DNA of 64,000 bases from Congeria kusceri (taxonomy: Eukaryota > Mollusca > Bivalvia > Myida > Dreissenidae). The notes beneath the pieces are model-generated. The model was not told the DNA's origin and ran no database searches. It saw only the letters and a list, made by a program, of their open reading frames with translations. Positions 13,624 to 63,480 of the stretch are shown one piece after another; positions within the stretch are counted from its first letter, which is position 1, and each line of letters starts with the position of its first letter. Position numbers and translations under genes: made by a program. Location of the stretch: assembly GCA_027627225.1 (NCBI GenBank), contig CM051026.1, positions 8,871,425 to 8,935,424 on the forward strand, written 5' to 3'.

Positions 13624-16600
13624 CTGCAAAACAGAGTCACATCAAGATATTAAATTACTTTAAATGTTTAATAATGTTAATACACAAACTGCAGTGACAT
13701 CGTATTATTAATGCGTCGTTAAACGGACAATTACGCGTCTTAAAGATCTGCATAAAATACAATAATAATAAATATTTTAGTGTGACAGGAAGGTTCTGTA
13801 TCAGTTTATTGCCTAAAAGTCTGACACGTTGACTGGTGAGTTAGAATTGCATTTACCACAATTACACAGATGGAAACGATTACACGGTACGGTGAACATG
13901 TACGCATGAATGTGTCAGCTGATGTAACTATATGCAGTAATAACAGATTTCCTATACATGTATACATAAATGTGTCAGCTGATGCAACTATGGCATATGC
14001 AGTATTAATAGATTTTCTATACATGTATACATGAATGTGTCAGCTGATGCAACTATGGCATATGCAGTATTAATAGATTTTCTATACATGTATACGTGAT
14101 TACTGACATCTGTGTTATTCTATAGCTGACACAGGCTGACATATTTATAACATGTACATGTACATTATAATAACAGAAGTTAAGCTTTTACAACAGGAAA
14201 TATGTTTCAAAACAACATAAAATAAAACTTTTCACTCTTGTTCTTCTACACAAGTAACAAAAGCCAGTTGTTATTTAAACAGTTTTACAAATACAAATCT
14301 ATTAATTTAACAAATTTCAACTACAACAATTTAAAGTTTATTTACTTCATATAACGTTTGGAAACACGATGAATTATGAAACAATAATGCACGTATATTT
14401 ACTTGAAAACCACAAAATATAAACAGCAGGTCACAGAGTGTGTCATTGATTTGCACTCACTGTCTATTTACAGACATGCCATGAAGTCAGGAGTGACAGT
14501 CAAAATGCCTGATAAGTTATATTTAAAAATCAATAATATTGAAAATCATTCTTTACTGCTTTTGTAAACTTAAACTGACACATGTACATTCTACAACTAT
14601 GCAGCCTTACAATTATCTTATAATACATATTTCTAATAATATCCGGATGAACCCGCCATGATTCTAACCTGTATATCTACTGGATGTATCCTGATACAGC
14701 TTGCTGACCAGTTTCCCACTCAGGGTGTACTTGTACAGTGCGGTCTCATCAGTGACATACAGCTCCCCCTGGTGGTGGGTGATACCTGCACAGGGATGTT
14801 GTAACTGAAGCTTCCTGCCCTTCACCAGCTGCCCATTGTTGACTGAGATAAACTGGATCTCATCTGTGTTAGCATCATTCACAGTAACAGCAACTTCACT
14901 GTGAGTTATATGACATATGTCCCGTGGAGAAGTAGACACATCACAATGAGTAAGCACCCTGTACTGCTGGTCCAGCAGCTTTAATTTCTTATTGTTGTCT
15001 ACAACAAGAATCTGGCCATCAGGGAGAACACATATGCCTCTGATACTGAATGCTGATGAATCACTTGGTATGCGCACATTATACTCTGACTTTCCTTTAA
15101 CAGTCAATACTTGGTCTGGGTTTCCCTGCACTGTCAATGGCTGGGTACTGTGTACAATCCTCCCCAGACCTGACAGTTTGGACAAGTACTGCTCAATGTC
15201 ACTGTTAGGCTGGAATGTTAGTGAATGTTCAACCTGAAAAGAGTTCTCTTGCAGATATGTTTCAGACTGTTGTATTTTATCATTACATTTCTTGCTCACT
15301 ATGAAGGAGAGTTCCTCTTTGCTCTTATCACTTATGTCCTGTATGGCCTCATGAAGTTTTTTCAATTGATCCCGAAGTCTGATGCAGTTCTCAACATCTG
15401 TCTTGAGAGAAGCTTGGAGGCTCGTCAGTGTTGCTTTCATTTCATTCAAGGTGTTTGTTTCTATCTTGTCTAAAGCTGCATTTATTTTTCGGCGTGTTTC
15501 TCTGACATATCGTAATTGTTCATCATATGACCCCTGCACAGACTGCATGCAGGCCTCCTGTTTCTTCTGCAGGCATTTCATTACTTCCAGAATAGTTTGG
15601 AGCGAGCCAGAAAGTTGCTGCAGGTCAGTGGACTGTGTTTTGACTGACTCAGAAATGAGTGTCACTTTAGTGCACAGTCTGAAAAACAAAACGACAGCAT
15701 ATATATTAAAGCACAAATAGATGAAATTAAATTATATTCAGACAAGATGACAATTCTTATTTCAAAGCATGTACCATGGGAATGTCATATATACAATAAC
15801 AAGAGCCGTCAGTAAAACAGTTATGCCCCATCTCTGTTAAAAGCAAATCATTAAAATATAAAGTTTGGTGAGGATTGGATGAAAACTGTTGGACATTTAA
15901 AGTCTATACTGATAAAAAGGCCAATTTTGATCAATCAAGGGCCAAACCTCTGTACTTCCTGGGGTAATTTGGCTGATTATTTTTCCTGTTTTTTTTCTGA
16001 AGATTGGATGAAAACTGTTGAACTTATAGAGCGGAAATGTCTAACTAGAACTCTGCGAGTCGGGTGTTTCGCCTGACGCAGCATAACTCAAGTACAATAA
16101 CAGCAATTACCCCGAAACTTAACTTAACATTCCTTTTATGCCTTTTCATAATGATTGCACAAAAACTTCTCAAGTTACTGTCTGAACAAGTCTTATTTAA
16201 ACTTTTTTTTAAAAAGGGGCATAACTCAAGTACGATAAGAGGGAATATGCCGAAAATGAAACTTAACCTTTTATGCCTACTAACACTTCCCTAAAGTTTC
16301 ATAGTGATTCGACAAAATCTTCTCAAGTTATTGTCTGCAAACAACTGCAGGGGACGCTGCTGACAACGCCGCCACAGCCAAAAGTACCCCCTATATGTCG
16401 CTTTTTAGGCGACACAAAAATACCAATTTTAGATCATTCAAGAACCATAACTCAATAATTCCTAGAGTGATTTGGCTGATTATCGAATTTGGTAGAGATA
16501 TTATGGCCAGAAACATTTTCATGAAGTTTGGTGAGGATTGGACAAAAATTGTTGGACTTGGACAGCAGAAAGAAAAGTGGTCTACCGACGGACACACCGA

Positions 16601-18190
16601 CATTAGCAAACCAATATACCCCGCCATTTCTGATGGGGGGCATAATTAGATGCACTCAATGTCTATTTTGTAAATAGTACACATGTATTTTTCTTCAAGC
16701 TTCAACATGGAGAATGCAAATAAATAGTCAGATTAATACAATGACTACTTTGTTTGAGGATAAGTGCAGAAAGCGCAGTAATGCATGTGTAACTGATAAA
16801 AAGCACAGGAAAATTACCCTAAAACTGACTTTGATGAATAAATTATATCTTACAAATCTGTTACATTAAATACATTAGATTCGTTACTTGAATGAATTTA
16901 ACATTGGTGTAAGATTATGCCACTGTGAGACTGTGAATACAGTAATACAATTAAATTTAATGAATGAACATGTTAAACACATACCCAAACAACACCTAGT
17001 ATAAATATAGGAAACACTCCACGTGCAAATTAATGCTAGACTTCTCTAGTCAGGTTTATGTGTCGAGGTTTCTGAGCTATTTACAGTCACGTGGTAATAC
17101 AGTAAACCACCAAAACTCATTAAACTTCAAAGATATATATTGATATTACTACCCAGTTATTCAGTTAATGTGTTAATCATTGGTATCTAGGTAAATACAG
17201 GTTGTTTACAGCTGTGATTTCTCATTTCTTGAGACTGTCATTATTTGTTATTGGTCTTAACTTGATTACACAGCTAATTATTAGTTTTTATTTCAATAAT
17301 GTTTTCGAAGATAAAACAAAATAAAATGTCAATAAAAAACTTATTAAAATTTAATATAGTCAAAATAACCAAGACGTCCAAAGTTTGTAAATCAAAGAAT
17401 ATCTCATTCTTAAAATTAATTAATATGATTTTTTTTGAAATTTGAAGTGATCCATGGAAAATACTGAATTAATGAATGGAAAATTATGAACTACAGGCTG
17501 TTTACAGCTGTGATTTCTCATTTCTTGAGACTGTCATTATTTGTTATTGGTCTTAACTTGATTACACAGCTAATTGTTAGTTTTTATTTCAATAATGTTT
17601 TCGAAGATAAAACAAAATAAAATGTCAATAAAAAACTTATTAAAATTTAATATAGTCAAAATAACCAAGACGTCCAAAGTTTGTAAATCAAAGAATATCT
17701 CATTCTTAAAATTAATTAATATGATTTTTTTTTAAATCTGAATTGATCCATGGAAAATACTGAATTAATGAATGGAAAATTATGAACTATGTTACTGTAA
17801 CACAGTTTATTGTTATTCCAAAAACAATTAGAGCAAACAACATTTTCTGAAATACCTGTGGTTAAGGAAAGCGCAATTAGTGCAGCACAGCTGACTGTGG
17901 TCATTGCAGAACATTTCCAATTGTTTATCTCTGTGAACTTCGCATTTCAACAGAAAATCCTCCACCTTCTTTGAAATTGGCCATTTGTTCATATCTCCCC
18001 TTCCATAAGGGGAATGTTTTTTAAACAACTGACCATGAAGATGATTACATTCTCCACAGTAAAACTTTAAACATGTTTCACAGTAAAATTCTGCGACTAC
18101 CTCAATAGATTGCTCTTCGCAGATCACACAACAAAAATCTTTAAATTCATCTGACCCTTTAGCAACAGTAGACATAGAAAATGTCGCCAT
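13274..18190 (-). CDS. RING-less TRIM/B-box protein with NHL-like propeller (3 exons, 564 aa)
   Basis: The coding sequence is the join of 18190-17856, 15678-14669 and 13623-13274 on the minus strand. That is 1695 nt, or 564 codons plus TAA. Both introns are GT-AG and keep phase (AACCACAG|GT...TTTCAG|ACTGTG; ATACAG|GT...TTGCAG|TATGCC). Visible order: two B-box zinc-binding regions (about residues 20-60 and 83-112), a coiled coil (about 119-260), then NHL-like propeller repeats (from about 320 to the end) with GICVLPDG, CAVSPTGDRIYITN and HVTPAGQVLVCG. There is no RING finger before B-box 1, so intrinsic E3 ligase activity is doubtful and a scaffold or sensor role is inferred. The design matches bivalve TRIM-like families, often highly multiplied and linked to immunity in the literature. 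No frameshift or premature stop was found. Confidence 0.9.
13904..14097. repeat. 60-65 bp minisatellite in TRIM intron 2
   Basis: Three units share GAATGTGTCAGCTGATG and CTATACATGTATAC. The GTGTCAGCT landmark recurs at 60 and 65 bp intervals. Copies two and three are nearly identical. The rest of intron 2 (13624-14668) is AT-rich with nothing recognisable. Confidence 0.9.
14669..15678 (-). CDS. TRIM-like exon 2: coiled coil and start of propeller
   Basis: The acceptor is TTTTTCAG|ACTG at 15679-15680 and the donor ATACAG|GTTAGA at 14668-14667. It encodes about residues 112-448. The first half has heptad-like, charge-rich sequence (SVKTQSTDLQQLSGSLQTIL, ETRRKINAALDKIETNTL) typical of TRIM dimerising helices. 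The second half has NHL-type blades with the pattern G-I/V-x-V-x-P-D-G-x-I/V-L-V-x-D. The apparent ATG at 15716 lies in the intron and is not the start. Confidence 0.9.
15799..16650 (+). mobile_element. Tandem-core element in TRIM intron 1, split by a second insertion
   Basis: It begins AACAAGAGCCGTCAG and ends with ACCGACGGACACACCGAC, then the hairpin CCCCGCC...GGGGGGCATAA. Monomer parts repeat: AAGTTTGGTGAGGATTGGAT, GGCCAATTTTGATCA(T)TCAAG, and TTTGGCTGATTAT appear on both sides of the nested insertion at about 16045-16420. This is the general plan of several elements in the window. Non-coding. Confidence 0.6.
16045..16420 (+). mobile_element. Nested tandem-core element
   Basis: It starts near a hairpin GTCGGGTGTTTCGCCTGAC and ends at CGCTTTTTAGGCGACACA. 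Two monomers of ~120 bp each carry GCATAACTCAAGTACRATAA, ACTTAAC...CTTTTATGCC and TTCTCAAGTTAYTGTCTG. The flanking halves belong to the surrounding element, which shows this one inserted later. Confidence 0.6.
16660..17200. other. Intron 1 sequence, nothing recognised
   Basis: AT-rich intronic DNA between the nested repeat and the 296-bp duplication. A single CACGTG at about 17089 is the only notable short motif. Confidence 0.5.
17205..17795. repeat. 296-bp tandem duplication in TRIM intron 1
   Basis: The segment starting TTTACAGCTGTGATTTCTCA at 17205 is repeated from 17501 with only scattered differences (for example CTAATTATTAG versus CTAATTGTTAG). The second copy ends about 60 bp from the exon 1 donor. 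High identity indicates recent duplication. Confidence 0.9.
17856..18190 (-). CDS. TRIM-like exon 1: two B-boxes
   Basis: Starts at ATG 18190 (MATFSMSTV) and carries residues 1-112. B-box 1 candidates are C21, C24, C37, C40, C45, C48, H52 and H59. B-box 2 candidates are C83, H86, C95, H98, C103, C106 and H111. The usual final histidine of B-box 2 would fall after the splice junction, where the joined protein reads LNHRLCTK, so that ligand is absent or replaced. The donor is CACAG|GTATTT at 17855. No in-frame upstream ATG was noted. Confidence 0.9.
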
Positions 18191-19700: not shown

Positions 19701-19705
19701 TAACA

Positions 19706-20560
19706 AAAGCTGTCTCAGGACAGCGCGCTCAACTATTCAACCGCTTTGTCAGAGTTATCAGCCTTTATCACTACAAAAAAAGAGGCATACTTCTCCTAAA
19801 ATGCAAGTCACAGTTATATGCCTTGGTAAGTGACCGTATATAATGACCTTGAAGACATGTGTGATGTTTTAATTGATTATCTGTAGCAGATATAGAGATA
19901 ATTCTACTAAATTGCAGGTCAGAGCTATGGGCCTTGGAGAGTGACCTCATGAAGACATGTGTAAAGTTTCAACTCAATATCTGTAGTAGTTATAGAGATA
20001 TAGAGTTGTTGCACACTAACTTTAACCTAAATTTATAAGTATAAACAGGGGCATAATTCTGCTAAATTGCAGTTCAGAGTTATGGATCTTGGTCAGTGAC
20101 CAACATAATGACCACAAACATATATGAAGTCGCAATGGTGTAGTGGATAGGATGTCTGCCTTGGGACCAGGAGGTCCTGGGATCGATCCCCACTCAGGGA
20201 GCATTCTCAAAATCTTTCCAAAGACACCAAGTACTAGTTTTTCCCAGGAAACGGACTCAAAAGTGTCTCTATAAGCCAAAGACTTTCGATGCAATCAAGC
20301 TATCTGTAGTAATTATAGAGATATGGAGTTGCTGCACGCAATCTTTAACCTGAAGTACAAAAAGGGGCATAATTTTGCTAAATTGCAGGTCAGAGTTATT
20401 GGCCTTGGTCAGTGACTTTACATAATGACCCCAAAGACATTTGTGAAGTTTCTTTTAAATATCCGTAGTAGTTAGAGAGACATGTACTTTGTGCAAACAA
20501 TCCTTAACCTGAATTTTCTCTTGCACACAAACCTAAACCTGAATTTTCTAAGTGCAACAA
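19706..20560 (+). mobile_element. Tandem-core element, family A (~165-bp monomer), with SINE insertion
   Basis: It opens with AAAGCTGTCTCAGGACAGCG, CGCTCAACTATTCAACCGC, a hairpin-forming end seen again at 39295 and 39533. Monomers of ~165 bp carry GGGGCATAATTCTGCTAAAT, TGCAGGTCAGAGTTATGG, CTTGGTCAGTGACC, GAAGTTTCA and GAGATATGGAGTTG. The array is broken at 20130-20290 by a SINE. No protein is encoded. Confidence 0.75.
20130..20290 (+). mobile_element. tRNA-derived SINE inserted in a tandem-core array
   Basis: The head has A-box TGGTGTAGTGGATAGGATG and B-box GGGATCGATCCCC. The body runs GAGCATTCTC, CACCAAGTACTAGTTTTTCC, AGGAAACGGACTC, TATAAGCC. Flanking family A monomer sequence is interrupted in mid-unit, so the SINE is younger than that array. 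Its tail is the unit found tandemly amplified at 1150-1745 and singly near 11565. The target duplication is not clear. Confidence 0.8.
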
Positions 20561-20589
20561 GGCTTGCCACAGGATATGACGTATTCCCC

Positions 20590-21300
20590 CAAAGCATATG
20601 CTTGTCAGAGGAAGGCAACACAATGTCAGTTACATGTTGGCAAAAATTATGCTACTTACTAAAAGAGTTATGCTCCTTGTACTCTGCACTTCCTCTCGAT
20701 GTTCTCTATCAATATATAAAGTTTCATTTCAATCCCTTTAATGCTAATGGAGTTATGCTCCGCACAAGAAAAATAAACAAAGGGCAATAACTCTGTAAAT
20801 ATTGAAGAAACAGTTATGGCCTTTTTGCTCCGCACAAGAAAAATAAACAAAGGGCAATAACTCTGTAAATATTGAAGAAACAGTTATGGCCTTTTTGCTC
20901 TGCACTTCCTCTCATCAGCCTCTATCATTATATGAAGTTTCATTTGAATCCCTTCAACGCTAATGGAGTTATGCTCCGCACCAGAGAATTAATGCTTCAC
21001 ATACGAAAATAAGACAAAAAAAGAGTTGCGATCCTTGTGCTCTGCACTTCCTCTCATTGTCCTCTATTATTACATGAAGTTTCGTTTGAATCCAATCAAA
21101 ACTAACAGAGATATGATCCGCACAAGTAAATTAATGCTTCAAAAAAGGAAAAAAACAAAGGGCAATAACTCTGTAAATATTGAAGAAAGAGGTGTTGTCC
21201 TCGTGCTCTGCACTTCCTCTCACTGTCCTCTATCATTATATGAAGTTTCATTTAAATCCTTGAAATACTAATGGAGGTATGCTCTGCACAAGAAAACTTA
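20590..21300 (+). mobile_element. Tandem-core element, family B (~155-bp monomer)
   Basis: Repeated modules: GGGCAATAACTCTGTAAATA, TTGAAGAAACAGTTATGGCC, CTCTGCACTTCCTCTC, TGAAGTTTCATTTGAATCCC and AATGGAGTTATGCTCCGCAC. A 69-bp stretch is exactly repeated at about 20759 and 20828, a fresh internal duplication. Open frames here come from the repeat. Confidence 0.75.
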
Positions 21301-21369
21301 GAAATATGGAAATTCCACGAAAACCACATTTTTCCAACGAAATGCATAAAAGACAGCACAATAATGAAA

Positions 21370-22790
21370 TAAAGTTCTGGGTGCCATAAGCATTCCTAAG
21401 CGAGGTCTCTTTATAAGGTATCTATGTATGAAGTTTCAATAAAATATCGCAATGCGTTCTCAAATTATTGAGCAGAAATCGTTTTTGTATTTTTAGTAAC
21501 ATTGACATGGACCTTGATCTCACCCACCCCATATGCAATCCAAAGCGTGGTCTAGACACAAGGTATCTATGTATGAAGTTTCACTTAAATATCTTAAGAG
21601 GAAACAATTTGTCTATGTTTAGTAAAGGAAACTTTGACACCACCTACACTATATGCAATCCCAAGCGAGGTCTTGAAGTTTCATTAAAATATCTCTATGC
21701 ATTGTCAAGTAATTAAGCTAAAACCGTTTTTCTATTTTTAGCAATGATGACCCTGACCCCACCCACCACATATGCAATCCCAAGAGAGGTCCCAATATAA
21801 GGTATCTATGTATGAAGTTTGATTAAAACATCTTGATGTGTTTTCAAGTAATTAAGAGGAAACCATTTTCTATTTTTAGTATCTGTCACCTTGACCTTGA
21901 CCACACCCACACCCATATGCAATCTCATTCAAGGCTTCGATATAAGGTGCATATGTATGAAGTTTCATTAAAATATCTCGATGCGTTCTCAAGTTATTGA
22001 GCAGAGACCGTTTTTTAGTTACGGTGACCTTTATGTTGACCCCACCCCATATGCAATCATAAGCAAGGTCTCAATATAAAGTATACATGTAACAGTGACC
22101 TTGGCCATGACCTCACCCACTCCATATGCAATCTCAAGCAAGGTCTCGATATAAGGAATATACGTTCGAAGTTTCATTAAAATATTTCTATGCATTCTCA
22201 AGTTATTGTGTGGAAACCATTTTTCTATTTTTATTACAGGTTACTTTGGCCGTGACCCCACCCATCCCAAATGCAATCCCAGGCGAGATCTTGATATAAG
22301 GTATCTTTGTATGAAGTTTCACCAAAATATCTTGATGCATTCTCAAGTTATTGAGCGAAAACCGTTTTTCTATTTTCAGCAATAGTGACCTTGACCCCAA
22401 CCACCCCATATGCAATCCCAAGCGAGGTCTTGATATAAGGCATCTATGTATGAAGTTTCATTAAAATATCAATAATGCCTTCTGAAGTTATTGAGCGGAA
22501 ACCGTTTATCTATTTTTAGTAAGGGTGACCTTGACCCCACCCACCCCATATGCAATCCCAAGCGAGGTCTCAATATAAGGCATCTATTTATGAAGTTTCA
22601 TTAAAATATCTCGATGCGTTGTCAAGTTATTGAACGGAAACTGTTTTCCTATTTTTAGTAATGGTGACCTTGACTTTGACCCCACCCACCCCGTATGCAA
22701 TATAAAAGCAAGGTCTTGATATAAGGTATCTATGCATTAAGTTTCATTAAAACATTTTAATCCGTTCTCGAGTAAGAGAGCGGAAACAAA
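21370..22790 (+). mobile_element. Tandem-core array, family C (~140-bp monomer, about 10 copies)
   Basis: Each unit carries GTGACCTTGACCCCACCCAC, CCCATATGCAATCCCAAGCG, AGGTCTCGATATAAGG, TATGAAGTTTCATTAAAATA, CTCAAGTTATTGAGCGGAAA and CCGTTTTTCTATTTTTAG. Spacing between GTGACCTTGACCCC landmarks near 22385 and 22525 is 140 bp. Units vary by a few percent to about 20 percent. The same family recurs at 39600-39850, 40400, 41370-42030 and 57850-58060. Confidence 0.8.
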
Positions 22791-22854
22791 AAGTTGATGC
22801 CGCCACCCACTGTCCGCCTGCAGGCCCAACGACATACCCCAATCTAATAACAGA

Positions 22855-23098
22855 AATTATTCTTTGAAAAATTTGGTTAACAAATGGCAATAACTTCATA
22901 AATATTGAAGAAAGAGTTGTGGTCCTTGTACTCTGAACTTCCTCTCATTGTCCTCTATCATTAAATGCAGTTTCATTTGAATCCCTTTAATACTAATAGA
23001 GTTATGCTCCGCAAAATAAGCTTGACAGACAGACGGACGGACAGAGGGAAGAACCGACAGACGATGCGATAACCATATGCTCCCAAAGTTCCCGTCGG
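22855..23098 (+). mobile_element. Family B 3' end with GACGG-rich terminus
   Basis: A last family B monomer (GGCAATAACTTCATAAATAT, AGTTATGCTCCGCA) passes into GACAGACAGACGGACGGACA, then CATATGCTCCCAAAGTTCCC and GTCGGAAACATAATAA. This is a decayed form of the terminal hairpin seen intact at 43799-43827. Confidence 0.6.
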
Positions 23099-23104
23099 AA
23101 ACAT

Positions 23105-23432
23105 AATAATAAGGGGCATAATTCTGCTAAAATGCTGGCCACAGTTATGGGTATTGGCCAGTGACCTTATATAATGACCCTGAAGGCATGTGTGAAGTTT
23201 CAGTTGAATATCAGAATTCTGTAGTAGATACAGAGATATGGAGTTGTTTCACACAAACTTTAACCTGAATTTCTTAGTACAAAAAGGGGCATACTTCTGC
23301 TAAAATGCTGGTCACAGTTATGGGTCTTGGCCAGTGACCTTATATAATGACCCTGAAGCCATGTGTGAAGTTTCAATTGAATATCTGTAGTTACCGATAT
23401 ATGTGCTCGTTGCAAGCAAACCTTAACGAGAG
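23105..23432 (+). mobile_element. Family A array, second block
   Basis: Two ~165-bp family A monomers (GGGGCATAATTCTGCTAAAA, TGCTGGYCACAGTTATGGG, TGTGTGAAGTTTCA). With 19706-20560 they bracket families B and C, so the 19.7-23.4 kb region looks like a nest of elements inserted into one another. Confidence 0.7.
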
Positions 23433-23439
23433 CATTACG

Positions 23440-23780
23440 CAGACGAATAGGTGAGTAGTGTAGCTAGAGCTTATCAGTGAATAGTCGAGCTTAAAATGTA
23501 AGTACTCAACACGTCACCTGTACTCGTAAAGCAACAGAAGGGTGATTTTGGCAGGCAGATAATCGAACATTATCAAATATGTCCGCATAGGTTTTTTAAA
23601 CAGACATAAATACTGTTTGCATAAACATTTATCACACTACTTCAAAAGGTTTCTATTGCACGCATATTTTATTACCCATAATAGTCTACATTTAATGTTA
23701 CTCTGTATGTTTGTCAAGACCATATAGAGTTCATATGCTGACAGTAAATGCAGTCAAACATTGAGTTCTGTAACACTAAA
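23440..23780. other. No gene seen
   Basis: AT-rich sequence downstream of the repeat composite. Nothing recognised. Confidence 0.5.
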
Positions 23781-27493: not shown

Positions 27494-27599
27494 TTAAAGC
27501 CGAAATTTTCATTTTCTGATGGGGCTACATGTACAAGTCAATGTTGGTAAAGAAGAATGGAAGTTTCATGTTGATGATCTAAAATGTATGCTGTAAAGT

Positions 27600-28390
27600 T
27601 TCATCAAGCTTCATCAAGAACTTTAGAAAATATGCAAGGAATACAAAACTTTAAAGCAAATTGTATTTTTAGCTCTTGTGGCCATTTTGTGCACTGAGGT
27701 AGAACCATTTGAATAACTTTTGATACAGGACAACTAAACGAACACTGGTGTGAAATTAATTGAAAATCTAGCAATAGGTCTAAAAGAATTCGCATTAGAC
27801 ATACTTATATTTTTAGCTATTGCGGCCATCTTGTGCAGTGGAGTGGAACCTTTTCACAATTTTGGTAGAGGACCATCCAACGAACATTTCTGTAGAGTTT
27901 CATCAAGATTGACTTAGAACTTTTGAAAATATGACAGGAAAACAAAACTTCAACAAAAATTCTATTTTTAGCTCTAGTGGCCATTTTGTGCAGTGAGGCG
28001 GAACCAATTGAATAAGTTTGGTAGAGTGTAAAGTTTCATCAAGATTAATCAAGAACTTTAGAAAATATGACAGGAATACAAAACTTTAACGCAAATTCTA
28101 TTTTTAGCTGTGGCCATTTTGTGCTGTGAGGCGGAACCATTTGAATAAGTTTGGTAGATGAACACTTAATGAACATTTGTGTAAAATAATTTGAAAATCT
28201 ATCCATAGGTTTAGAAGAAAATGGCGTTGAGACATAATTCTATTTTTAGCTCTGGTGGCCATCTTGTGCAGTGAAGTGCAACCATTTTACAGGTTTGGTA
28301 GAGAACATTCAAGGAACATTTCTACAAAGTTTCATGAAGATTGACAAAGATTTTTTTTAAATATGACAGGAATACAAAACTTTAACCGAC
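27600..28390 (+). mobile_element. Tandem-core array, family H (~125-155-bp monomer)
   Basis: About five units carry TATTTTTAGCTCTGGTGGCC, ATTTTGTGCAGTGAGGCGGA, ACCATTTGAATAAGTTTGG, AAAGTTTCATCAAGATT and AAATATGACAGGAATACAAA. Landmarks GTGGCCATTTTGTGC occur near 27678, 27823, 27977, 28101 and 28255. No terminal hairpin was identified, so the ends may be lost. Confidence 0.75.
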
Positions 28391-28514
28391 CGGTTTTTCG
28401 CTAATCCATAAGCCAAGATTTTTTGTTGAAAAATCTGGCTAAAATTATAGTTTTGTCAATCGAGTTTTGTCAATTGTTTGAAGAAACATGGCCATCACAT
28501 TAAACAATGATTCA

Positions 28515-28804: not shown

Positions 28805-29690
28805 TATACTTTGAAGCAATCCTGTTAGCCTTTAATAGTCCAAGTGCCGACAAAAGCTTATTACATCTTAACTAACTTCTAGAACATTCCTGAAAATCAT
28901 TCTATGTTTGGAGATGGGCTCTGCTTTGTTATGGTCTACAAACTTCACATTTTGGAGCAATGTCCGTAATATCTCTGTTCTCTGTATATTTTTAAAACAA
29001 AATATTCTAAAAGTAATTCTTCAGCGTTAATCCAACAATCAGAACGTAGATTAAGACATAGTCATATCCCATTTCCTTGGTTTTCATGAACATATGACAA
29101 TAACAAATATGTGATCCGTACGGATACCTCCATCTACGCAGCCTTTTTACATGGCGCCACGTTGTCTGAATGCATACAAATCAGTTTGCAAAAGATAAAT
29201 TGTCCTTTTATAATGTACTTTCTGCTAATATATTATCATATTCTAAGTTGAGCTATAACAAAATAGTTTCAGTCCTGACAAATAATCAACAAAGGGTAGT
29301 ATTCAAAACTTTCGTGCAATTATGAGTTATGGTTCTTGTATGCTTTACTTACACTTGCGATCGTAAATCATTCTGTGCAGAATAAACAGAAAGCCTATAA
29401 TCATTTTATAGACTGTTGGCGGAAGCCATCAATTTTTTGAGAGGGTAATTTACGAAACAGGCATTGTGCAAAACTACTATTCTTTGCAGGCTACAAGTCA
29501 GTATATCAAAACCTGAAAAGATGCTTCTTCAAAACAGCAAAAATTCAAGGATGTTTTGTTAGCTTTTTATTATTTAAGATAATGTATTTCAGATGTATTT
29601 TAATGTGTATATAATGTGGTTTATTACAATTACAGTGTCTAGACAAGATTCTGTGTTTGATAAACACATGTGCCCCCGATTGGTGCTGGG
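28805..29690. other. No gene seen
   Basis: AT-rich. No domain, RNA gene or repeat family recognised. Confidence 0.5.
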
Positions 29691-29699
29691 TAGTCCATT

Positions 29700-30256
29700 T
29701 CTTAATCCAGATTAGGTCAAGGTCAAATTGAGGTTGGGTGATATGGGTAAATGGGGAACGGTCATAAGTAAAAACTGTGTAAATATCCAAGTGTTGTAGT
29801 AAGCGGTGTTGGTGCTAGACGAAACAGTAAAATCTAGTTAACCAAGAAATGACACTTTCAAATTATTCTAAGTGCAAATTAGGTCAAGGTCAAAGTGAGG
29901 TTGAATGATAAGGGTGGATTGGGAATGGTCATAAGTAACAACTGTGTAAATATCTAAGTGTAGTAGTAAGCGGTGTTGCTGCTAAACGAAACGGTAAAAT
30001 CTAGTTAACCAAGAAATGGCACTTTTGAATCATCATAATTCCAAATTAGGTCAAGGTCAAAGTAAGGGTGGGTGATATGGGTGGATAGGGAATGGTCATT
30101 AGCAACAACTGTGTAAGTATCAAAGTGTTGTAGTAAGCGGTGTTGGTGCTAGACGAAACGGTAAAATCTACTTAACCTTGTCACGGACGGAAGGATGGAA
30201 GGAAGGAGGGACAGGAAGATCACTATATGCCTCCTTCATCAATTTGCCGGGGGCAT
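29700..30256 (+). mobile_element. Tandem-core element, family G (~166-bp monomer, three units)
   Basis: Units start at TTAGGTCAAGGTCAAA near 29713, 29878 and 30046 and share GGTAAATGGGGAACGGTCAT-like and GTAGTAAGCGGTGTTGGTGC modules. The 3' side has GTCACGGACGGAAGGATGG followed by TATGCCTCC...CCGGGGGCATAAAA, the shared terminal hairpin type. Confidence 0.75.
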
Positions 30257-30259
30257 AAA

Positions 30260-30820
30260 AAAAGTAAATTCATTAAAAACCCTCCACTAACCTCGGCATA
30301 AAAACAGTCAATTCATAAAAAATGTCCATTAAATTAAGGCGCTTCATCGGTTACTTTTCACTCGTTGTGAAAGTGTTATTTCTAGTTACTGATTCTTATT
30401 CTGAATATTTTGACAACAAATTACTGTAATGTGTTAATTTTAAACTGCAGTATGGAAAAGCTCGAGCAGGCATCGTATGACCTACTTTTGATTCAGTAGG
30501 CTACGCATCACTTACAATCGATGCTCCTAACTATCGCGCTTTATCCATTATTCTGCATGGCTCGTTGATGATTGATTTGCTTACTGGCATTTATATAATT
30601 CCGTTTGCATTCGATATACATGTCGTGTATACTATTAAATAGGAAGCCATATTATTAAGCTTAAGGTAGGAAAATAAAATTCATTCAAACAAATGTTTCC
30701 TTTTTTAGCAAAAATGCACTCATAATTCACATGATTTGTATTTCTGCCAAATAAAACTAAAAAATCTCGCATGCATTACAATATTATGCTTTCAACAATT
30801 ATTTGACTTTTTACCTTAAT
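30260..30820. other. No gene seen
   Basis: AT-rich spacer between two tandem-core elements. Confidence 0.5.
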
Positions 30821-30824
30821 TAGT

Positions 30825-31920
30825 GACCTTGAAGTTTCAGCTACAGACCTGGTTCTTAAATGCCACATGTTGTCTCATAATGCTTATCACTTCTGCCAAG
30901 AAATTTGAAAATGCTTCCCTGCCAGGCAAAATTATATTTCGGTCAAAGTCAATGACTTAAACGCTTATATTTGACCTTCAAGTGTGACCTTGACCTTGGA
31001 CCATAGGACCTGGTTGTTGCACGCCACATGCTGTCTCACTTCTGTCAAGTAATTTGAACATTCTTTCATGCCATACAAAATTATGCTCCGACAGAGTCCA
31101 TGGTATTAATCCTTATATTTGACCTTTGACCTTTAAGTGTGACCATGACCTCGGGCCTAGTTGTTACACAGGACACACCATCTTATAATGGGTATCACCA
31201 TCACCATCTGCCAAGTTATTGAAAAATCCTTCAATGCTGGACAGTAATTGCCTGGACAAGAATCTTAACATATATACATTAACTTGATCTTTGATCTTTA
31301 AGTGTGACCTTGACCTTGGGATAAAGCACATGATTCTTGCACGCCACACTCCGCTGCATGATGCTTATCGCTTGAACCAAGTTATTTGAAAATTCTTCCC
31401 TGCTGGATAATATTATGCTCCCATCAGTGTCTATGACTTAAAATTTTATATTTGACCTTGGACCTTTAAGTGTGACCTTGACTTTGGACCAAGGGACCTG
31501 GTTTGTGCGCGCGACACACCATCTTAATGCTTAGCCCTTCTGCCAAGTTATTTGAAAATGCTTCTCTGCTGGGCAAAATTATGCTCCGGACTGTATCTAC
31601 AGCTTAAATTCTTATATTTGAAATTTGACCTTTAAGTGTAACCTTGACCTTGAACCTAGAGAATTGGTTCTTGCCCACGACACACCGTTGCACGATGCTT
31701 AACACTTGTGCTAAGTTATTTGAAATTCCTTCCATGCTGAACAACATTATGCTCCGGACAGGGTCTATGGCTTAAATTCTCATATTTGACCTTTGACCTT
31801 TAAGTGTGACTTTGAACTTGGACATAGGAACCTGGTCCTTGTGAGTGACACGCCGTCTCATTATGCTTAACATTTCTGAAAATCATCCAATGCTGGACAA
31901 AGTTATTGACCAGACAAAAA
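30825..31920 (+). mobile_element. Tandem-core element, family D (~168-bp monomer, about 6 units)
   Basis: Monomers carry TTTGACCTTTAAGTGTGACC, TTGACCTTGGACC, GGGACCTGGTTCTTG, TGCTTATCACTTCTGCCAAG, TTATTTGAAAATCCTTCC and AAAATTATGCTCCGGACAG. The GTGACCTTGACC landmarks are spaced ~165-170 bp. It runs directly into the 60-bp satellite at 31925, which supplies its 3' end. Confidence 0.75.
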
Positions 31921-31924
31921 TCCG

Positions 31925-32826: not shown

Positions 32827-32829
32827 CAC

Positions 32830-42250: not shown

Positions 42251-42254
42251 GTTA

Positions 42255-43689: not shown

Positions 43690-43830
43690 TTATACAGAAT
43701 TAAGTTTCGTTTGAACCCCTTCAATACTAATGGAGTTATGCTCCACACAAGAAGCGTGACGGACGGACGAACAGACGTATGGACGATGCGATTACTATAT
43801 GCCCCCGAAGTGCCCTTTGGGGGGCATAAA
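43690..43830 (+). mobile_element. Family B 3' end with intact terminal hairpin
   Basis: TTAAGTTTCGTTTGAACCCC and TAATGGAGTTATGCTCC (family B) lead to GTGACGGACGGACGAACAGA, then TATGCCCCCGAAGTGCCC, TTTGGGGGGCATAAAAA. This is the clearest example of the shared terminus. Confidence 0.75.
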
Positions 43831-43934
43831 AATTGTTTTTGGGATACACGGTACCAGTAGGTTTCAAACTCATGACTACAAAATCAAACACTTCAATATC
43901 CATGTGACACTAATCAGAGTATGTCGATGGCGCC

Positions 43935-45017: not shown

Positions 45018-46490
45018 CAAGGCCGTCCAAAGGAGAGCTATATCCCCCGCCGTGATCCTTCATTAGATTTTAAAAGTGACTTTGAAGTATCACACTGACC
45101 TTTATCTGGCGCAGTTGGACCAGATATGAAAGTACAGTTTCAGAAACTAGATATGGAGCTGACACAAAAATGGAAACACAAAGATTCGACTTTTAAGTGT
45201 GACCTTGACTGCTCCATGCCTTCTGCACATCGTAATGAACATATGAGCCAAGTTTTATGAAAATCCTTCAAAGGGCATAGGAGATATGGAGCAGGAACAA
45301 AAACGGAGTATCAAACATTTGACCTTCAATTGTGACCTTGACCTTGAGGTGGCATGACTGCCTCATGCCTTCTGCACACTGCCTTAATGTGATAAACATT
45401 TGAGGCAAGTTTCATGAAAATCCTTTACATGGCACAGGAGATATAGAACAGACATGAAAATACAGGCTCAAACATTCAACCTTCAAGTGTGACCTTGACT
45501 TTGAGTTGGTACGACTGGCTTATGCCTTCTGCACATGGTCTCAATCGGCAAATCATTTTAGCCAAGTTGAAAATCCTTCAAAATGTATAGAGGATATGGA
45601 GCAGACATGAAAAACAGACACGAAAATGGAGGCTCAAAAACTTAACCTTCAAGTGTGCTCTTGACCTTGCACTGGCTTGAAAGGCCCATGCCTTCTGCAC
45701 CTCGTCTAAATGACCAAAGCATTTGAGACAAGTTTCATGAAATATTTCAAAAGGCATAGGAGATATGGAGCGGACTGGAAATAAAGGCTCGAAGATTTGA
45801 CCTTCAAGTGTGACCTTGACCTTGAGCCAGCGTGACTGATCCATGCTTTCTGCACATCGTCTTAATGATCTAAACATTTGAGCCAAGTTTCATGAAAATC
45901 CTTCAAAGGGTAAAGGAAATACGGAGCGGACACGAAATGGAGGCTCGAACATTTGACCTTCAAGTGTGACCTTGACCTTGAGCTGGCTTGAAAGGCCCAT
46001 GCCTTCGGCACATCGTCTAAATGACCAAAGCATTTGAGCCAAGTTTCATGAAATATTTCAAAAGGCATAGGAGATATGGATCGGACACGAAATGGAGGAT
46101 CAAATATTTGACCTTCAAGTGTGACCTTGACCTTGAGCCGGCGTGACTGACTCATGCCTTTTGCAAATCGTCTTAATGACCTAAATATTTGAGCCAAGTT
46201 TCATGAAAATCCTTCAAAGGGTAAAGGAGATATGGAGCGGACACACAATGGAGGCTCAAACATTTGACCTTTAAGTGCAAACTTGACCTTGAGCCGGCGT
46301 GACTGACTCATGCCTTCTGCACATCGTCTCAATGATCTAAACATATGAGCCAAGTTTCATCCTTCAAAGGATATAGGAGATATGGAGCAGACACAAAAAT
46401 GTTACGGACAGACCGACGGACAGACAGACAAGTTGATTCCAGTATAACCCCCTTACAACTTCGTTGTGCGTGTTGTGCATGGTATAAAAA
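45018..46490 (+). mobile_element. Tandem-core element, family E (~157-bp monomer, about 8 units)
   Basis: It starts AACAAGGCCGTCCAAAGGAG, AGCTATATCCCCCGCCGTG. Monomers carry GAGATATGGAGCGGACACGA, ATTTGACCTTCAAGTGTGAC, CTTGACCTTGAGCCGGCGTG, CATGCCTTCTGCACATCGTC and GCCAAGTTTCATGAAAATCC. The 3' end has GGACAGACCGACGGACAGAC, AGTATAACCCCCTTACAAC and ends near GGTATAAAAA at 46486. This is a complete-looking element of ~1.47 kb. Long antisense open frames reflect the repeats. Confidence 0.8.
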
Positions 46491-46494
46491 TAGT

Positions 46495-50079: not shown

Positions 50080-50430
50080 ATGGCTGCTCCCGAACCCTGC
50101 ATTGACCTTGAAATGTGGCATTGACTTTACCCTATGGACCTGATTCATGAAAGACACCCTGACTTAATGAGACAAACATTTGTGTAAAGAGATTAAAAAA
50201 ACAACAACCATTAAAAACAATAACCATTGTATATTATATGTATAAGTTCGGAGAAGCAAAAAGCCAATTCCGGTGTTTGACCTTTAAATATACTCTTGAG
50301 CTTTGACCTACAGTCATGGTTCATGGCTTAACATGCTGCCTTACTAGACACGACACACTGGGACTGGGCGGGACGGGACAAAGTGAGTCCTGTATAGCCC
50401 CCCCCCCCATCATGATTGGCGGGGGTAAAT
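50080..50430 (+). mobile_element. Tandem-core element remnant with terminal hairpin
   Basis: ATTGACCTTGAAATGTGGCA, CCTATGGACCTGATTCATGA and GGGACTGGGCGGGACGGGAC are followed by TATAGCCCCCCCCCCCATCA, TGATTGGCGGGGGTAAATAA. The G-rich tail and hairpin match the shared terminus, although GCATA is replaced by GTAAATA. Confidence 0.55.
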
Positions 50431-50875
50431 AAGCAATAAAATATGGAAACACTTTCAGCTGGTATTTTGCGATTGTTATTGCTCAAAACAATCGTCCGGA
50501 TTGTGAATGTACAAAGTGGATAAATTGGCCAGAATATAGGTCTATAGATATGCACATTACAAAGGGCTGCTCAGGCAAGATTACCTAGTTTTAGGAAAGG
50601 CCTTAGGCTATATTAGTCGTGCACGACAAGTAAATGTATCTAAAATGATAAAAATTTAGAACATATTAACTAATCAAACAACTTCAAACTGCATCTGTCT
50701 CCATCACCATTTCACTGATATGTCAGTCACCACGTGACGAGATATAGAAAGATAATCATCCCAACAATGGTACACATTTACACTGAAATAGCATGTCACT
50801 GTCATTTAACGGGACCATTTTCATAGTTAACTTTTCAATTTCCTATTGCTGTAATGTTACATAAACGTTAAACAT

Positions 50876-53736: not shown

Positions 53737-53836
53737 ATCAGGCAAACAGTTTTGCACGCTAATTGCAAGACAAAACACTTCTTGACTTGGTTGAGATTGC
53801 AAAAACAGAATTCATGTAAACTTGAATGTATAAAAA

Positions 53837-54336
53837 CAAGAGCTGTCAGAGGACAGTGCGCTCTACTATTCGAAGTAGTTCAGTTGGTGCATATTTTGGA
53901 AAGTGGAGGGGGCATACATTTGTTAAAATACAAAACTTTTAAGTGAAGCCTTGTATAGTTAATAAATTTTTGAAACAAAAATTTTAACAACAAAGTCTAT
54001 GTAAAAAGTGGGCTAACTGTCAAAATACAAAACAGATTTATGGGTAATGTTGCCCCTGATACTACAGTTGATGACAAAGGTTAGTTCCAAGTTTCAAGTG
54101 AATAACTATGTAGTTTTTAAGTTACAAAACTGTTGAATATAAACTTCAAAAACTTCAAAAAGTGACATAACTCTGTCAAAATACAAAACAGAGCTATGGG
54201 GAATGTTCACCCTGATTCTGGTGTTGCTGACGAAGGTATATTCCAAGTTTCAAGTGAATAGCTTTTGTAGTATTGACGTTACAAAACGTTTGAATATAAA
54301 CATCAACCAGAAAATCTATGTGAAAAAGGAGCATAA
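53837..54336 (+). mobile_element. Tandem-core element, family I (~160-bp monomer)
   Basis: It opens ACAAGAGCTGTCAGAGGACA, GTGCGCTCTACTATTCG, the same start as family A. About three monomers carry GTGACATAACTCTGTCAAAA, TACAAAACAGAGCTATGGGG, CCTGATTCTGGTGTTGCTGA and TTCCAAGTTTCAAGTGAATA. Its right side passes into the duplicated block at 54337. Confidence 0.7.
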
Positions 54337-54916
54337 CTTTGTCAAAATACAAAACAGTGTTATAGATGTGGCGATAATTATGATATGGTTAGTGATTACG
54401 ACGACCACAGCAATGAAGACAACGATGCTGTTGCTTCCGATGCTGATGATGATAATGAATATGACGACGGTGACGATGATGATGACATTGATGAAGAAGA
54501 TTAAGAATAAGACAACGCTATGGCGAACACGATAATGATAATGATGAAGAAGACAATGATGACTATGACAATGATGATGGTGACTATGATGATAATGATG
54601 AAGAATTAAATATGAAATTTTTTCTATTTTTGGAACTATTTTGCTGCATTTTCACATTTGCAGACATTAAAGTTTTGAAAGTGAACTGTCTTTGCATAGA
54701 GGTGTGTATACTTAACAACACTGCTTTTAAATGAATTGACTCCCAATTAAAAGTAGACCAAAGTAAATCGGATATGCCGAGAGTTTACCACAGCGTCCCA
54801 AGCTCGGAACAGGCTGTGCTAACCTAAGTTGTAATGTCCAAACTATGTTTTAAGTTATAGTATTTAGTGTTTCTTTTTCTGACTGTTTTTCGTGATCAAC
54901 AACCATTCAAAATGCC
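54337..54916. repeat. 580-bp direct repeat, copy 1
   Basis: From CTTTGTCAAAATACAAAACA to AACCATTCAAAATGCC. It is nearly identical to 55765-56344 (only isolated changes such as GCTTCCGATG versus GCTTCTGATG), 1428 bp apart. It includes a GAT-rich tract at 54400-54605. Confidence 0.95.
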
Positions 54917-57609: not shown

Positions 57610-58265
57610 CAGGAAAATAATGAAAGGGCCATAACTTGCAAATGGAGGAGAAAAATTTAAATCCTCATTTATACTCACAAGTACACGTCCTATCTGGCCC
57701 ATATTCGACCTCAAAAGAGACCTTATGGCTATACACAAACAGTGCAAGTCTCTGTCCTCCACATTGTTTCGTGCTCAGGTGAGCTAAAATGTGGTTGGAC
57801 AGAACAGAGTGATTACTATAAGGCATCTGCCAAAAATGTGCGGGGGGCCCTAATTAGTAATAAAAGGTATCCATGCTTGAAGTTGAATTACAATAGCTCA
57901 ATTGGTTCTCGAGTAATTGAGCGGTAACCCTTTTGCTATTTTTTGTAACGGTGACCTTAACAGTGACCCCATCCACCCCCTATGTAATCCCAAGCCAGGT
58001 GTGGATATAAGGTATCTATGGATAAAGTTTCATTAAAATATTTCAATTCGTTCTTAAATTAGAGAGCTGAAACCAAATGTTGACTACGCCTCAAAATGAA
58101 AAATTAACAAAGAGCAATAAATCCAGAATTATTAATTGCAGAGTAACCGTTCTTGTGCACTGCACTTCTCCTCAATGAGATCTATCAGCCTATGAAGTTT
58201 CAAGTTAATACCTCTTACAGTCTAAGAGTTATGCTCAAGGCAAAAACGAAGTAAAATTTATTACA
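57610..58265 (+). mobile_element. Mixed tandem-core fragments (families C and B and another)
   Basis: 57625-57790 has GAAAGGGCCATAACTTGCAA. 57880-58060 is a family C unit (GGTGACCTTAACAGTGACCC, GTATCTATGGATAAAGTTTC). 58090-58250 is family B-like (CACTGCACTTCTCCTCAATG, CTAAGAGTTATGCTCAAGG). Confidence 0.65.
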
Positions 58266-62559: not shown

Positions 62560-63480
62560 TTATATGTAGATGTACAAAGTTTCATATTCAAATCACATTT
62601 GTCACTGCAGTATTAAGTCGTTTTATTTGTTATTTTAGTAACATTGACCAAACACACTTTTTGAGTTATTGCAGTACTAAAATGACAGGGCGATTATATA
62701 GTCCATTCTGTGTACCAGAGTTATTGCAGTACTAAAATGACAGGGCGATTATATAGTCCATTCTGTGTACCAGAGTTATTGCAGTACTAAAATGACAGGG
62801 CGATTATATAGTCCATTCTGTGTACCAGAGTTATTGCAGTACTAAAATGACAGGGCGATTATATAGTCCATTCTGTGTACCAGAGTTATTGCAGTACTAA
62901 AATGACAGGGCGATTATATAGTCCATTCTGTGTACCAGAGTTATTGCAGTACTAAAATGACAGGGCGATTATATAGTCCATTCTGTGTACCAGAGTTATT
63001 GCAGTACTAAAATGACAGGGCGATTATATAGTCCATTCTGTGTACCAGAGTTATTGCAGTACTAAAATGACAGGGCGATTATATAGTCCATTCTGTGTAC
63101 CAGAGTTATTGCAGTACTAAAATGACAGGGCGATTATATAGTCCATTCTGTGTACCAGAGTTATTGCAGTACTAAAATGACAGGGCGATTATATAGTCCA
63201 TTCTGTGTACCAGAGTTATTGCAGTACTAAAATGACAGGGCGATTATATAGTCCATTCTGTGTACCAGAGTTATTGCAGTACTAAAATGACAGGGCGATT
63301 ATATAGTCCATTCTGTGTACCAGAGTTATTGCAGTACTAAAATGACAGGGCGATTATATAGTCCATTCTGTGTACCAGAGTTATTGCAGTACTAAAATGA
63401 CAGGGCGATTATATAGTCCATTCTGTGTACCAAGTTTCATTATCATACGTTATGTTCTTTTAGAATTACTACAGTATTAA
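62560..63480 (+). repeat. 55-bp satellite, 14 near-identical units, inside a tandem-core-like element
   Basis: Units from 62665 to about 63434: GTTATTGCAGTACTAAAATG, ACAGGGCGATTATATAGTCC, ATTCTGTGTACCAGA, showing no variation by eye. Flanks contain ACAAAGTTTCATATTCAAAT (62576) and CCAAGTTTCATTATCATACG (63430), the AAGTTTCAT core of the tandem-core class, which the 55-bp unit itself lacks. The array therefore seems to have arisen from a shortened monomer, very recently or under homogenisation. Confidence 0.9.

What the first reader, a model, noticed from the sequence alone, without database searches (positions are those of the whole stretch)
15799..63480. A class of mobile elements with one architecture but about ten unrelated tandem monomers
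Elements at 15.8, 16.05, 19.7-23.4, 27.6, 29.7, 30.8, 39.3-42.2, 44.6, 45.0, 53.8 and 57.9 kb share a plan. Several have a 5' end AACAAG or ACAAGAGCTGTC followed by a hairpin. The middle is a tandem array of 120-170 bp monomers. Several have a 3' end rich in GGAC/GACAG, then a C-run/G-run hairpin and GCATA(A). The monomers otherwise differ. Established: tandem-core 'Pearl' elements in bivalves and Helitron/Helentron-like non-autonomous elements with central repeats. Inference: one mobilising machinery serves many core sequences, and cores of near-nucleosomal length are swapped between common ends.
Basis: partly seen in the sequence, partly recalled or inferred. Interest (0 to 1): 0.8.

Follow-up and report, generated by a model that had tools for sequence, protein, structure and literature searches.

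The report
Clam non-autonomous Helentrons with tandem cores
These are protein-less jumping genes of a known rolling-circle type (non-autonomous Helentrons, the Pearl/HINE kind) in what looks like a bivalve genome; many of their supposedly unrelated repeat cores turn out to be relatives set in a fixed position next to one end.

Summary
The repeats are real and most belong to mobile elements of a known kind: HINEs (non-autonomous Helentrons), like Cg_HINE and Pearl elements of bivalves. (1) The ends share a plan, not a sequence: each left end pairs best with its own right end (best of 720 pairings). Polarity is reversed: the GCATAA end is the Helentron 5' end, AACAAG its 3' end. (2) The cores are not 'about ten unrelated': six of eleven monomer families are linked by significant similarity, one box is near-matched in seven, and arrays mostly stop in one phase beside the left end. 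Genome-wide, AACAAGAGCTGTC occurs 12,443 times (reversed control 16); sampled copies carry J, C1, C2 or C2+C1 cores. Two nested insertions show filled and empty sites in A runs without duplication. A Rep/helicase element family has the same left-end plan with another sequence. Shared flanks with unrelated repeats are already in print for oyster (PMC7492417). Possibly new: the phase lock across families.

The parts
15798..16648 (-). E1: HINE with A-type monomers (about 146 bp). Strand is Helentron orientation; left (5') end GATGGGGGGCATAA (16632-16645), right (3') end AACAAGAGCC at 15798
   Evidence: subTIR TTATGCCCC/GGGGCATAA, p=0.0145; no stable 3' palindrome left
16049..16415 (-). E2: HINE with B-type monomers, nested in an A monomer of E1; subTIR TGTTTCGCCT/AGGCGACA
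   Evidence: filled/empty site comparison; subTIR p=0.066
19702..23497 (-). E3: alpha-ended HINE with C1 core (19702-20555 and 23108-23497), interrupted by E3b
   Evidence: right boundary shared with 39289 and 39521; left end GAATAGTCGAGC at 23479; subTIR p=0.003
20556..23107 (-). E3b: composite C3-C2-C3 element nested in a C1 monomer of E3
   Evidence: junctions CTAAGTGC|AACAAGG and CATAAT|AATAAGGGGC against intact C1 monomers; C3 left end shared with 43703-43815; its best end match (p=0.0115) is a near-palindrome AGCATATG and weak as a subTIR
27589..28401 (-). D-type array, four nhmmer hits; ends not found
29643..30262 (-). E5: HINE with 167-bp E monomers; right end ACAAGATTC + TGTGTTT/AAACACA hairpin; left end CGGGGGCATAAAAAA
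   Evidence: TRF; hairpin p=0.007; subTIR 8 bp, p=0.079
30745..32830 (-). E6: F-type 168-bp array, then a 60-bp minisatellite (31931-32807) and left end GGTGGGGGCATAC; right end not found
39289..39520 (-). E7a: alpha right end + C1 monomer
   Evidence: 87% identical to 19702-19900
39521..41061 (-). E7b: alpha right end, C2 repeats, other sequence at about 39850-40404, then C1 array; chimeric C2/C1 monomer, switch at about 40497-40510; left junction lies in a C1 monomer of E7a, left end not found
41363..42289 (-). C2 array joined abruptly to F monomers at about 42029; ends not found
43699..43831 (-). C3 remnant with GAC-rich module and left-end hairpin TATGCCCCC...GGGGGGCATAAAAA
   Evidence: hairpin p=0.003
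44646..45016 (.). H-type repeats, BIV160-like; ends not found
   Evidence: primer bivR quoted in PMC5139131 matches with 3 and 1 mismatches, 0 expected
45017..46494 (-). E9: 156-bp I monomers; right end ACAAGGCCGTCC, left end GGTATAAAAATAG; the two ends do not pair detectably
50100..50435 (-). decayed F element with left end CCCCCC...GGCGGGGGTAAATAA; array ends off-phase
   Evidence: sequence
53835..54380 (-). E10: alpha right end + J monomers; left end not found, a 580-bp duplicated stretch begins at 54337
57858..58243 (-). K: C2 followed by C3; ends not found

Best explanation
The elements are non-autonomous Helentrons (HINEs, Pearl-type) of what is probably a bivalve. In Helentron orientation (the minus strand here) the plan is: a T run; a subterminal repeat (subTIR) of about 8-13 bp; an inverted copy that closes a hairpin; a GTCC- or GGCGTC-rich short repeat; an array of 120-180 bp monomers; the inverted subTIR; a small palindrome; usually CTTGTT. 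They are inferred to be copied by the Rep-helicase of autonomous Helentrons, which nicks the 5' end, peels one strand and stops at the 3' palindrome; copies enter T runs without target duplication. Families arise by joint divergence of ends and core. Array length changes in whole monomers while the phase next to the left end stays fixed. New core combinations arise by nested insertion into the A run of a monomer (T run on the Helentron strand) and by recombination between related monomers in register. Shown here: anatomy, end pairing, boundaries, two filled/empty sites, phase lock, one in-register chimera, presence of Rep/helicase elements. Inferred: rolling-circle copying, use of such a Rep, direction of change.
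For: End pairing: the true pairing of 6 right and 6 left ends is the best of 720 permutations, and stays best when any one element is dropped. Alpha left end folds as subTIR GCTCGACTATTC + GAA + GAATAGGTGAGC (L007). Boundaries: three window copies start at the same base with different flanks. Two filled/empty pairs in A runs, and a further left junction at the same monomer position. Genome: AACAAGAGCTGTC 6,135 + 6,308 against control 6 + 10; alpha-J 893 + 917 and alpha-C1 220 + 177, controls 0. Alpha left end within 2 mismatches in 17 of 17 J copies and 4 of 6 further copies taken by the alpha-C1 pattern. Phase: 0 of 1,500 random phases reach the observed similarity; last box 98-124 nt from the left subTIR in 17 of 17 J copies (7 flank groups) and 111-120 nt in 6 of 6 scored C1 copies, J elements being 428-1,097 bp long. 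PF14214 gives 39 matches; L061 carries Helitron_like_N and PIF1 in separate ORFs and its family has a T run + hairpin 5' end in three copies. Literature: PMC7492417 (abstract, Results, first part of Discussion read) and PMC4067079 (passages).
Against: I placed the six pairs of ends by eye, partly because they paired, so the permutation test is not fully independent; the 17 J copies are (their left end was sought with the pattern of E3). The loose AACAAG + hairpin signature is not above chance. Single subTIRs are short: E2 and E5 are marginal (p=0.066, 0.079), E9 shows none (p=0.88), E3b's match is a near-palindrome. Right-end hairpins are significant in 2 of 9. No Rep element with alpha, beta or gamma ends was identified in 101 kb around 30 Rep matches; two alpha subTIR matches were seen, L027 (in opposite orientation to the Rep) and L039 (1 mismatch, at the edge of the locus, next to C2-like sequence), and from the 12,443 exact ends I estimate about one by chance. 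One genomic empty-site search found nothing. Two arrays break the phase rule: E5 has no recognisable box, the 50.4-kb F copy ends elsewhere (read). The AP-endonuclease that names Helentrons was not seen in 9 ORFs scanned.
Confidence: 0.86

Rival explanations
1. One reading: one machinery with common ends; unrelated cores are exchanged freely between those ends.
For: One right-end start occurs with J, C1 and C2 cores; L073 carries C2 and C1 in one complete alpha element and the window has a C2/C1 chimera. Group 2 of Cg_HINE has related flanks with unrelated repeats (PMC7492417, section read).
Against: Ends differ between families and pair within elements. C1, C2, C3, F, I, J are linked by similarity. 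Array phase is fixed beside the left end even for the mutually dissimilar A, B, D, E (17 of 1,500 random phases reach it), which free swapping would not give.
Confidence: 0.12
2. MITEs: derivatives of a cut-and-paste DDE transposon with terminal inverted repeats.
For: An earlier paper filed Pearl and DTC84 as MITEs (PMC5139131, passages). A piggyBac-like transposase lies at 25.9-27.0 kb (PF13843).
Against: Inverted repeats are subterminal and asymmetric, with a palindrome on one side and a T run on the other; no target duplication beyond A's at the two filled/empty sites; no TTAA boundaries of piggyBac type (recalled) there.
Confidence: 0.04
3. Ordinary dispersed satellite DNA (BIV160 superfamily) spread by unequal exchange; the 'ends' are chance flanks.
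For: H is BIV160-like and three listed places show no ends; standalone arrays occur in oyster (PMC8268682, passages).
Against: Common boundaries in copies with different flanks and 12,443 copies of one end.
Confidence: 0.05
4. The shared boxes and fixed phase are convergent: a protein-binding site near the left end is kept by selection and amplified, without common descent of all monomers.
For: Boxes recur in families whose other sequence shows no similarity; TGACCTTGA is in five families, in E on the other strand.
Against: C1, C2, C3, F, I, J also share sequence outside the boxes. No binding data.
Confidence: 0.15

Closest known systems
Cg_HINE elements of Crassostrea gigas (PMC7492417; abstract, Results, first part of Discussion read)
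   Same: Left flank of subTIR, IR and GTCC-type short repeat; right flank of subTIR and palindrome; consensus repeats of 138-181 bp; T-rich insertion without duplication; some share flanks but not repeats; double arrays.
   Different: No oyster sequence was compared here. That paper gives a variable 10-500 bp spacer between short repeat and array and calls group 3 unrelated; here six of eleven core families are linked and most arrays stop in a fixed phase.
Pearl elements (CvA, CvE, CvG; Gaffney 2003, not seen, known through citing passages) and DTC84
   Same: Short central arrays of about 160 bp in modular bivalve elements; CvA repeats related to BIV160/Cg170 (PMC5139131, passage).
   Different: Sequences not available here, so membership by sequence was not tested.
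DINE-1 / HINE-Mo and autonomous Helentrons (PMC4067079, passages)
   Same: subTIRs, inverted repeat near the 5' subTIR, 3' palindrome, central repeats, TT insertion; at least 11 bp of identical subTIR defines a family, met by alpha (12 bp).
   Different: There the autonomous partner shares the ends; here none with alpha ends was identified.
BIV160/Cg170 satellite family (PMC5139131, passages)
   Same: H monomers match the published BIV160 primer; the family is said to share two conserved motifs despite divergence.
   Different: Whether its two motifs are the boxes found here was not tested.
Helitron-N3, N4, N28 and five more of C. gigas sharing Box 4 and Box 5 (PMC8268682, passages)
   Same: Eight entries share both end segments; eleven satellites are linked to such elements.
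   Different: Sequences not compared; that the satellites differ between the eight is my inference.

Membership tests
HINE (non-autonomous Helentron) | Subterminal inverted repeats shared by left and right end | tested here: met
   Best of 720 pairings over 6 elements placed by eye; alone p<0.05 in E1, E3, E3b (E3b near-palindromic), marginal in E2 and E5, absent in E9; alpha 12 bp in 17 of 17 J copies at <=2 mismatches
HINE (non-autonomous Helentron) | Inverted copy next to the 5' subTIR | tested here: met
   Alpha left end of L007 folds with subTIR and inverted copy as arms; 43.8-kb left end p=0.003; E2 p=0.047; other left ends not significant, E3's not seen
HINE (non-autonomous Helentron) | 3' palindrome | tested here: inconclusive
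   Of 9 right ends E3 and E5 p=0.007; E2, E7a, E7b, E10 p=0.06-0.20; E1, E3b, E9 none. CTGTC/GACAG is read in E3, E7a, E7b, E10
HINE (non-autonomous Helentron) | Insertion in T runs without target duplication | tested here: met
   Two filled/empty sites with both sides readable; one genomic empty-site search negative, a second did not complete
HINE (non-autonomous Helentron) | No coding capacity | tested here: met
   7 ORFs of 112-227 aa in or overlapping elements: no Pfam match above cut-off
HINE (non-autonomous Helentron) | Autonomous Helentron with the same ends | tested here: inconclusive
   39 PF14214 matches; 30 loci of about 3.4 kb examined, upstream sequence of three more families; a 5' end was reached in one family, which has the plan but another sequence
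HINE (non-autonomous Helentron) | Central tandem repeats and short microsatellite | tested here: met
   GAC-rich modules read
Canonical Helitron | 5'-TC and 3'-CTRR ends, A|T target (recalled) | tested here: not met
   Right end reads CTTGTT and left end starts in a T run
Pearl | Sequence similarity to CvA/CvE/CvG | not testable with these tools
   No oyster sequences at hand
BIV160 satellite | Monomer similarity | tested here: inconclusive
   H only: one 21-nt primer matches at 44689 and 44856; whole monomers not compared

The most novel reading that the evidence does not exclude
The segment from AAGTTTCATnAAAAT to about GAGTTATGGAGCGGAAAC, set about 50-62 nt inside the left short-repeat module, is a working part of the transposon's left end (a site for Rep or a host factor). 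The tandem array is then an amplified, iteron-like run of that site, so cores that look unrelated are one functional module diverging around fixed boxes.
Probability: 0.18. Interest if true: 0.6.

Novelty: new member of a known kind. Interest (0 to 1): 0.36.

Why it matters
It explains a large repeat class of this genome (over twelve thousand exact copies of one end) with a known mechanism, and corrects two ideas: that the ends are common and that the cores are unrelated. The phase lock gives a direct, cheap test of whether Helentron central repeats are passengers or part of the transposition machinery.

Tried and rejected
Loose AACAAG + hairpin counts: not above chance. First strict subTIR scan: mostly chance partners. 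Viral-contig scans for the end and for TGACCTTGACCTTTGACCT: one contig each, neither with similarity to the window nor tandem repeats. Rep families Hel1-Hel3 were looked at with extra upstream sequence and their ends were not recognised; Hel5 and Hel6 only within their loci. Regional strand clustering: 36 runs against 50.9 expected in the first 100 alpha places (p=0.0013; 0.010-0.037 thinned), but none in the 100 alpha-J places (p=0.32; 0.07-0.50 thinned); the lists overlap and no control element could be run, so no claim is made. The 47.15-kb AACAAG hairpin element with 41-bp repeats shows no inverted end pairing by eye and was left out. Text search for TGACCTTGACC: 44 papers, 30 listed; only PMC10743806 was opened (a primer), the rest judged by title. 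A search for Helitron orientation bias gave four papers, none opened. Searches behind the statement that I saw no report of a phase lock: with PMC7492417 (abstract, Results, first part of Discussion), PMC5139131 (outline, abstract, passages) and passages of PMC4067079, PMC8268682, PMC11136912, PMC8905726; of PMC4792442 only the outline.
Full report
What is in the window. Tandem Repeats Finder gives arrays with periods of 140-168 bp at five of the 11 listed places; the other six hold few or diverged copies. Self-comparison shows that many arrays are copies of each other: 19.7-23.4 and 39.3-42.0 kb share families I call C1 and C2, 57.9 kb has C2 and C3, and 30.8 and 42.0 kb share family F. I cut monomers from eleven families (A, B, C1, C2, C3, D, E, F, H, I, J). 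A bivalve is likely: the H repeats match a published BIV160 primer with three and one mismatches, none expected (primer from PMC5139131). I did not identify the species.

Ends. In the orientation used for Helentrons (minus strand here) the left end is T run, subTIR, inverted copy, GTCC- or GGCGTC-rich short repeat; the right end is subTIR, palindrome, usually CTTGTT. This is the layout reported for Cg_HINE (PMC7492417, Results read) and for DINE-1/HINE (PMC4067079, passages). For six elements with two placed ends (E1, E2, E3, E3b, E5, E9) I aligned each right end with the reverse complement of each left end: the true pairing has the highest total of all 720 permutations and stays highest when any one element is dropped. 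Alone, E1, E3 and E3b are below p=0.05, E2 and E5 are marginal (0.066, 0.079), E9 shows nothing (0.88); E3b's match is a near-palindrome and weak evidence. The ends were placed by eye, partly on this pairing, so the genome copies below are the independent test. At least three end types occur: alpha (GCTCGACTATTC), a TATGCCCCC type (E1, E5, the C3 and F elements) and that of E2 (GTGTCGCCTA). L005 and L010 show a further right end, AACAAGAGGGCC followed by GGCC, seen by reading and not counted. Hairpins exceed shuffles only in some ends (right ends E3, E5; left ends E2 and 43.8 kb; a solitary hairpin at 34.95 kb), and a bare 'AACAAG plus hairpin' is no more frequent than in shuffles.

Boundaries and empty sites. 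The copies at 19702, 39289 and 39521 begin at the same base although their flanks differ. E2 lies inside an A monomer of E1...GTCTAACTAG|AACTCTGCG...GGCGACAC|AAAAATACCAATTTT against an intact monomer ...GTCTATACTGATAAAAAGGCCAATTTT. E3b lies inside a C1 monomer...CTAAGTGC|AACAAGG...CATAAT|AATAAGGGGC against ...TTAGTACAAAAAGGGGC. The left junction of E7b is at the same place of a C1 monomer. All are in runs of A (T on the Helentron strand) and show no duplication beyond A's. One genomic empty-site pattern found no match; a second did not complete.

Genome-wide copies. AACAAGAGCTGTC has 6,135 forward and 6,308 reverse exact matches against 6 and 10 for the reversed pattern. With the J-type continuation of the subTIR there are 893 + 917, with the C1-type 220 + 177, controls 0. 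I examined 28 copies (8 loci and 20; 100 of 12,443 places were listed). Cores by nhmmer: J 17, C1 4 (three with one shared flank), C2 4 (three with one shared flank), unassigned 3. The three same-flank C2 copies lack the alpha subTIR; L006 has a variant of it. All 17 J copies have the alpha left end within two mismatches, elements being 428-1,097 bp long; by flanks they are seven insertions, some multiplied inside larger repeats. L060 (C1) has a diverged alpha left end, placed by eye. Of six further copies taken by the C1 continuation (of 397), four have C1 cores and an alpha left end within two mismatches (L070-L073; L073 carries C2 then C1), L074 has C1 and no left end found, L069 has no C1 core.

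Cores. Local alignment of circular consensus monomers against 200 shuffles per pair gives z above 4 on the same strand for 8 of 55 pairs, linking C1, C2, C3, F, I and J; one pair exceeds 4 on the opposite strand (C3-J). A, B, D, E and H are not linked by this test. A 14-mer, AAGTTTCATGAAAA, is matched within three mismatches on the same strand in 7 of 11 families (0 of 100 shuffled sets; with shorter words and fewer mismatches 1-2 of 100 sets reach the observed count).

Phase. For nine families with an identifiable array end on the left side, the last 70 nt before the GAC-rich module are more alike than segments cut at random phase (mean pair score 23.9 against 18.5 +/- 1.0, 0 of 1,500). With only A, B, D and E, which the pairwise test does not link, 17 of 1,500 random phases reach the observed value. 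The box starts 50-62 nt from the array end in 8 of 9; E has no recognisable box; in A, F and I the best match has 5-6 mismatches of 15. I placed the array ends by eye, a weakness. The decayed F copy at 50.4 kb is off-phase (read). Outside the window the rule holds without a placed array end: from the last box to the left subTIR it is 98-124 nt in 17 of 17 J copies (7 flank groups, assigned by eye) and 111-120 nt in 6 of 6 C1 copies, including the window's E3; one of these (L071) matches the box with 5 mismatches. Arrays therefore change by whole monomers and keep their phase to the left end.

Core exchange. At 40,404-40,620 one monomer changes from C2 to C1 at about 40,497-40,510, at matching positions of the two monomers, and L073 is a complete alpha element with C2 on the right and C1 on the left. 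Recombination between related monomers in register, and nesting, can account for mixed cores without a cassette-exchange machinery. This is inference from few cases.

Machinery. Helitron_like_N (PF14214) gives 39 matches. Two of them (L061, L062) belong to one family; L061 has Helitron_like_N with a Rep match and a PIF1 helicase in separate ORFs, L062 a PIF1 helicase ORF (9 ORFs scanned). Three copies of its 5' end read T run + TTTAGACTGTTGGC, loop, GCCAACA (the third is an 87-nt match): the left-end plan of the small elements with another sequence. In 101 kb around 30 Rep matches two alpha subTIR matches were seen: L027, in opposite orientation to the Rep, and L039, one mismatch at the edge of the locus; I take both as neighbours, not as ends of the Rep element. 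Seven ORFs in or overlapping the window's elements have no Pfam match above cut-off, and ten other long ORFs gave a piggyBac-type transposase in two pieces, an NHL match and a B-box.

Comparison with print. PMC7492417 already describes eleven Cg_HINE elements with thirteen repeat clusters, shared flanks with unrelated repeats, double arrays, T-rich insertion and no partner found; PMC8268682 (passages) reports eight Helitrons sharing both end segments; PMC5139131 (passages) says BIV160 and Cg170 share two conserved motifs. The kind is therefore known. In what I read I saw no statement of a fixed array phase across families; PMC7492417 reports a variable spacer there.

Verdict. Ordinary in kind, a good correction of the finding, with one observation (phase lock with shared boxes) worth a genome-wide test.

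Noticed in passing
33 sites, e.g. 21892, 29717, 45333, 50103: TGACCTTGA occurs 33 times against 0.64 expected, all 33 inside the core clusters, in families C1, C2, E, F, I (E on the opposite strand). From recall, TCAAGGTCA is an extended half-site of nuclear receptors of the NR5A/ERR type; no binding was tested.
   Followed up: partly
window 15861-58243; G000:C1 0.4-18.5 Mb: 12 of 13 core clusters in the window lie on one strand. The first 100 alpha places on contig C1 show fewer strand runs than chance (36 against 50.9, p=0.0013; 0.010-0.037 thinned), but the sparser alpha-J list does not (p=0.32). No control element could be run.
   Followed up: partly
47154-47830 and 33790-34013: Two inverted relatives (about 77% identical) starting AACAAGAAATGTCTTT, with a 7-bp hairpin at 47154; the copy at 47.2 kb holds twelve 41-bp repeats. 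No inverted end pairing seen by eye.
   Followed up: partly
14664-15731 and 17828-18205, minus strand: NHL and B-box matches suggest a TRIM-like gene; E1/E2 lie between the two pieces.
   Followed up: partly
25872-27021, minus strand: piggyBac-type transposase (PF13843) in two ORFs.
   Followed up: partly
54337-54916 and 55765-56344: 580-bp direct duplication, 99.7% identical, one copy starting in the J repeats of E10.
   Followed up: no
20126-20290 and 44570-44640: tRNA-like SINE sequence inside C1 repeats; a similar one on the other strand next to the H repeats (read).
   Followed up: no
31931-32807: 60-bp minisatellite between the F array and its left end, in the place of the usual short GAC-rich repeat; it may be that repeat expanded.
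   Followed up: no
34945-34985: Solitary hairpin CCCCCACC/GGTGGGGG like the left end of the F elements (p=0.003).
   Followed up: no
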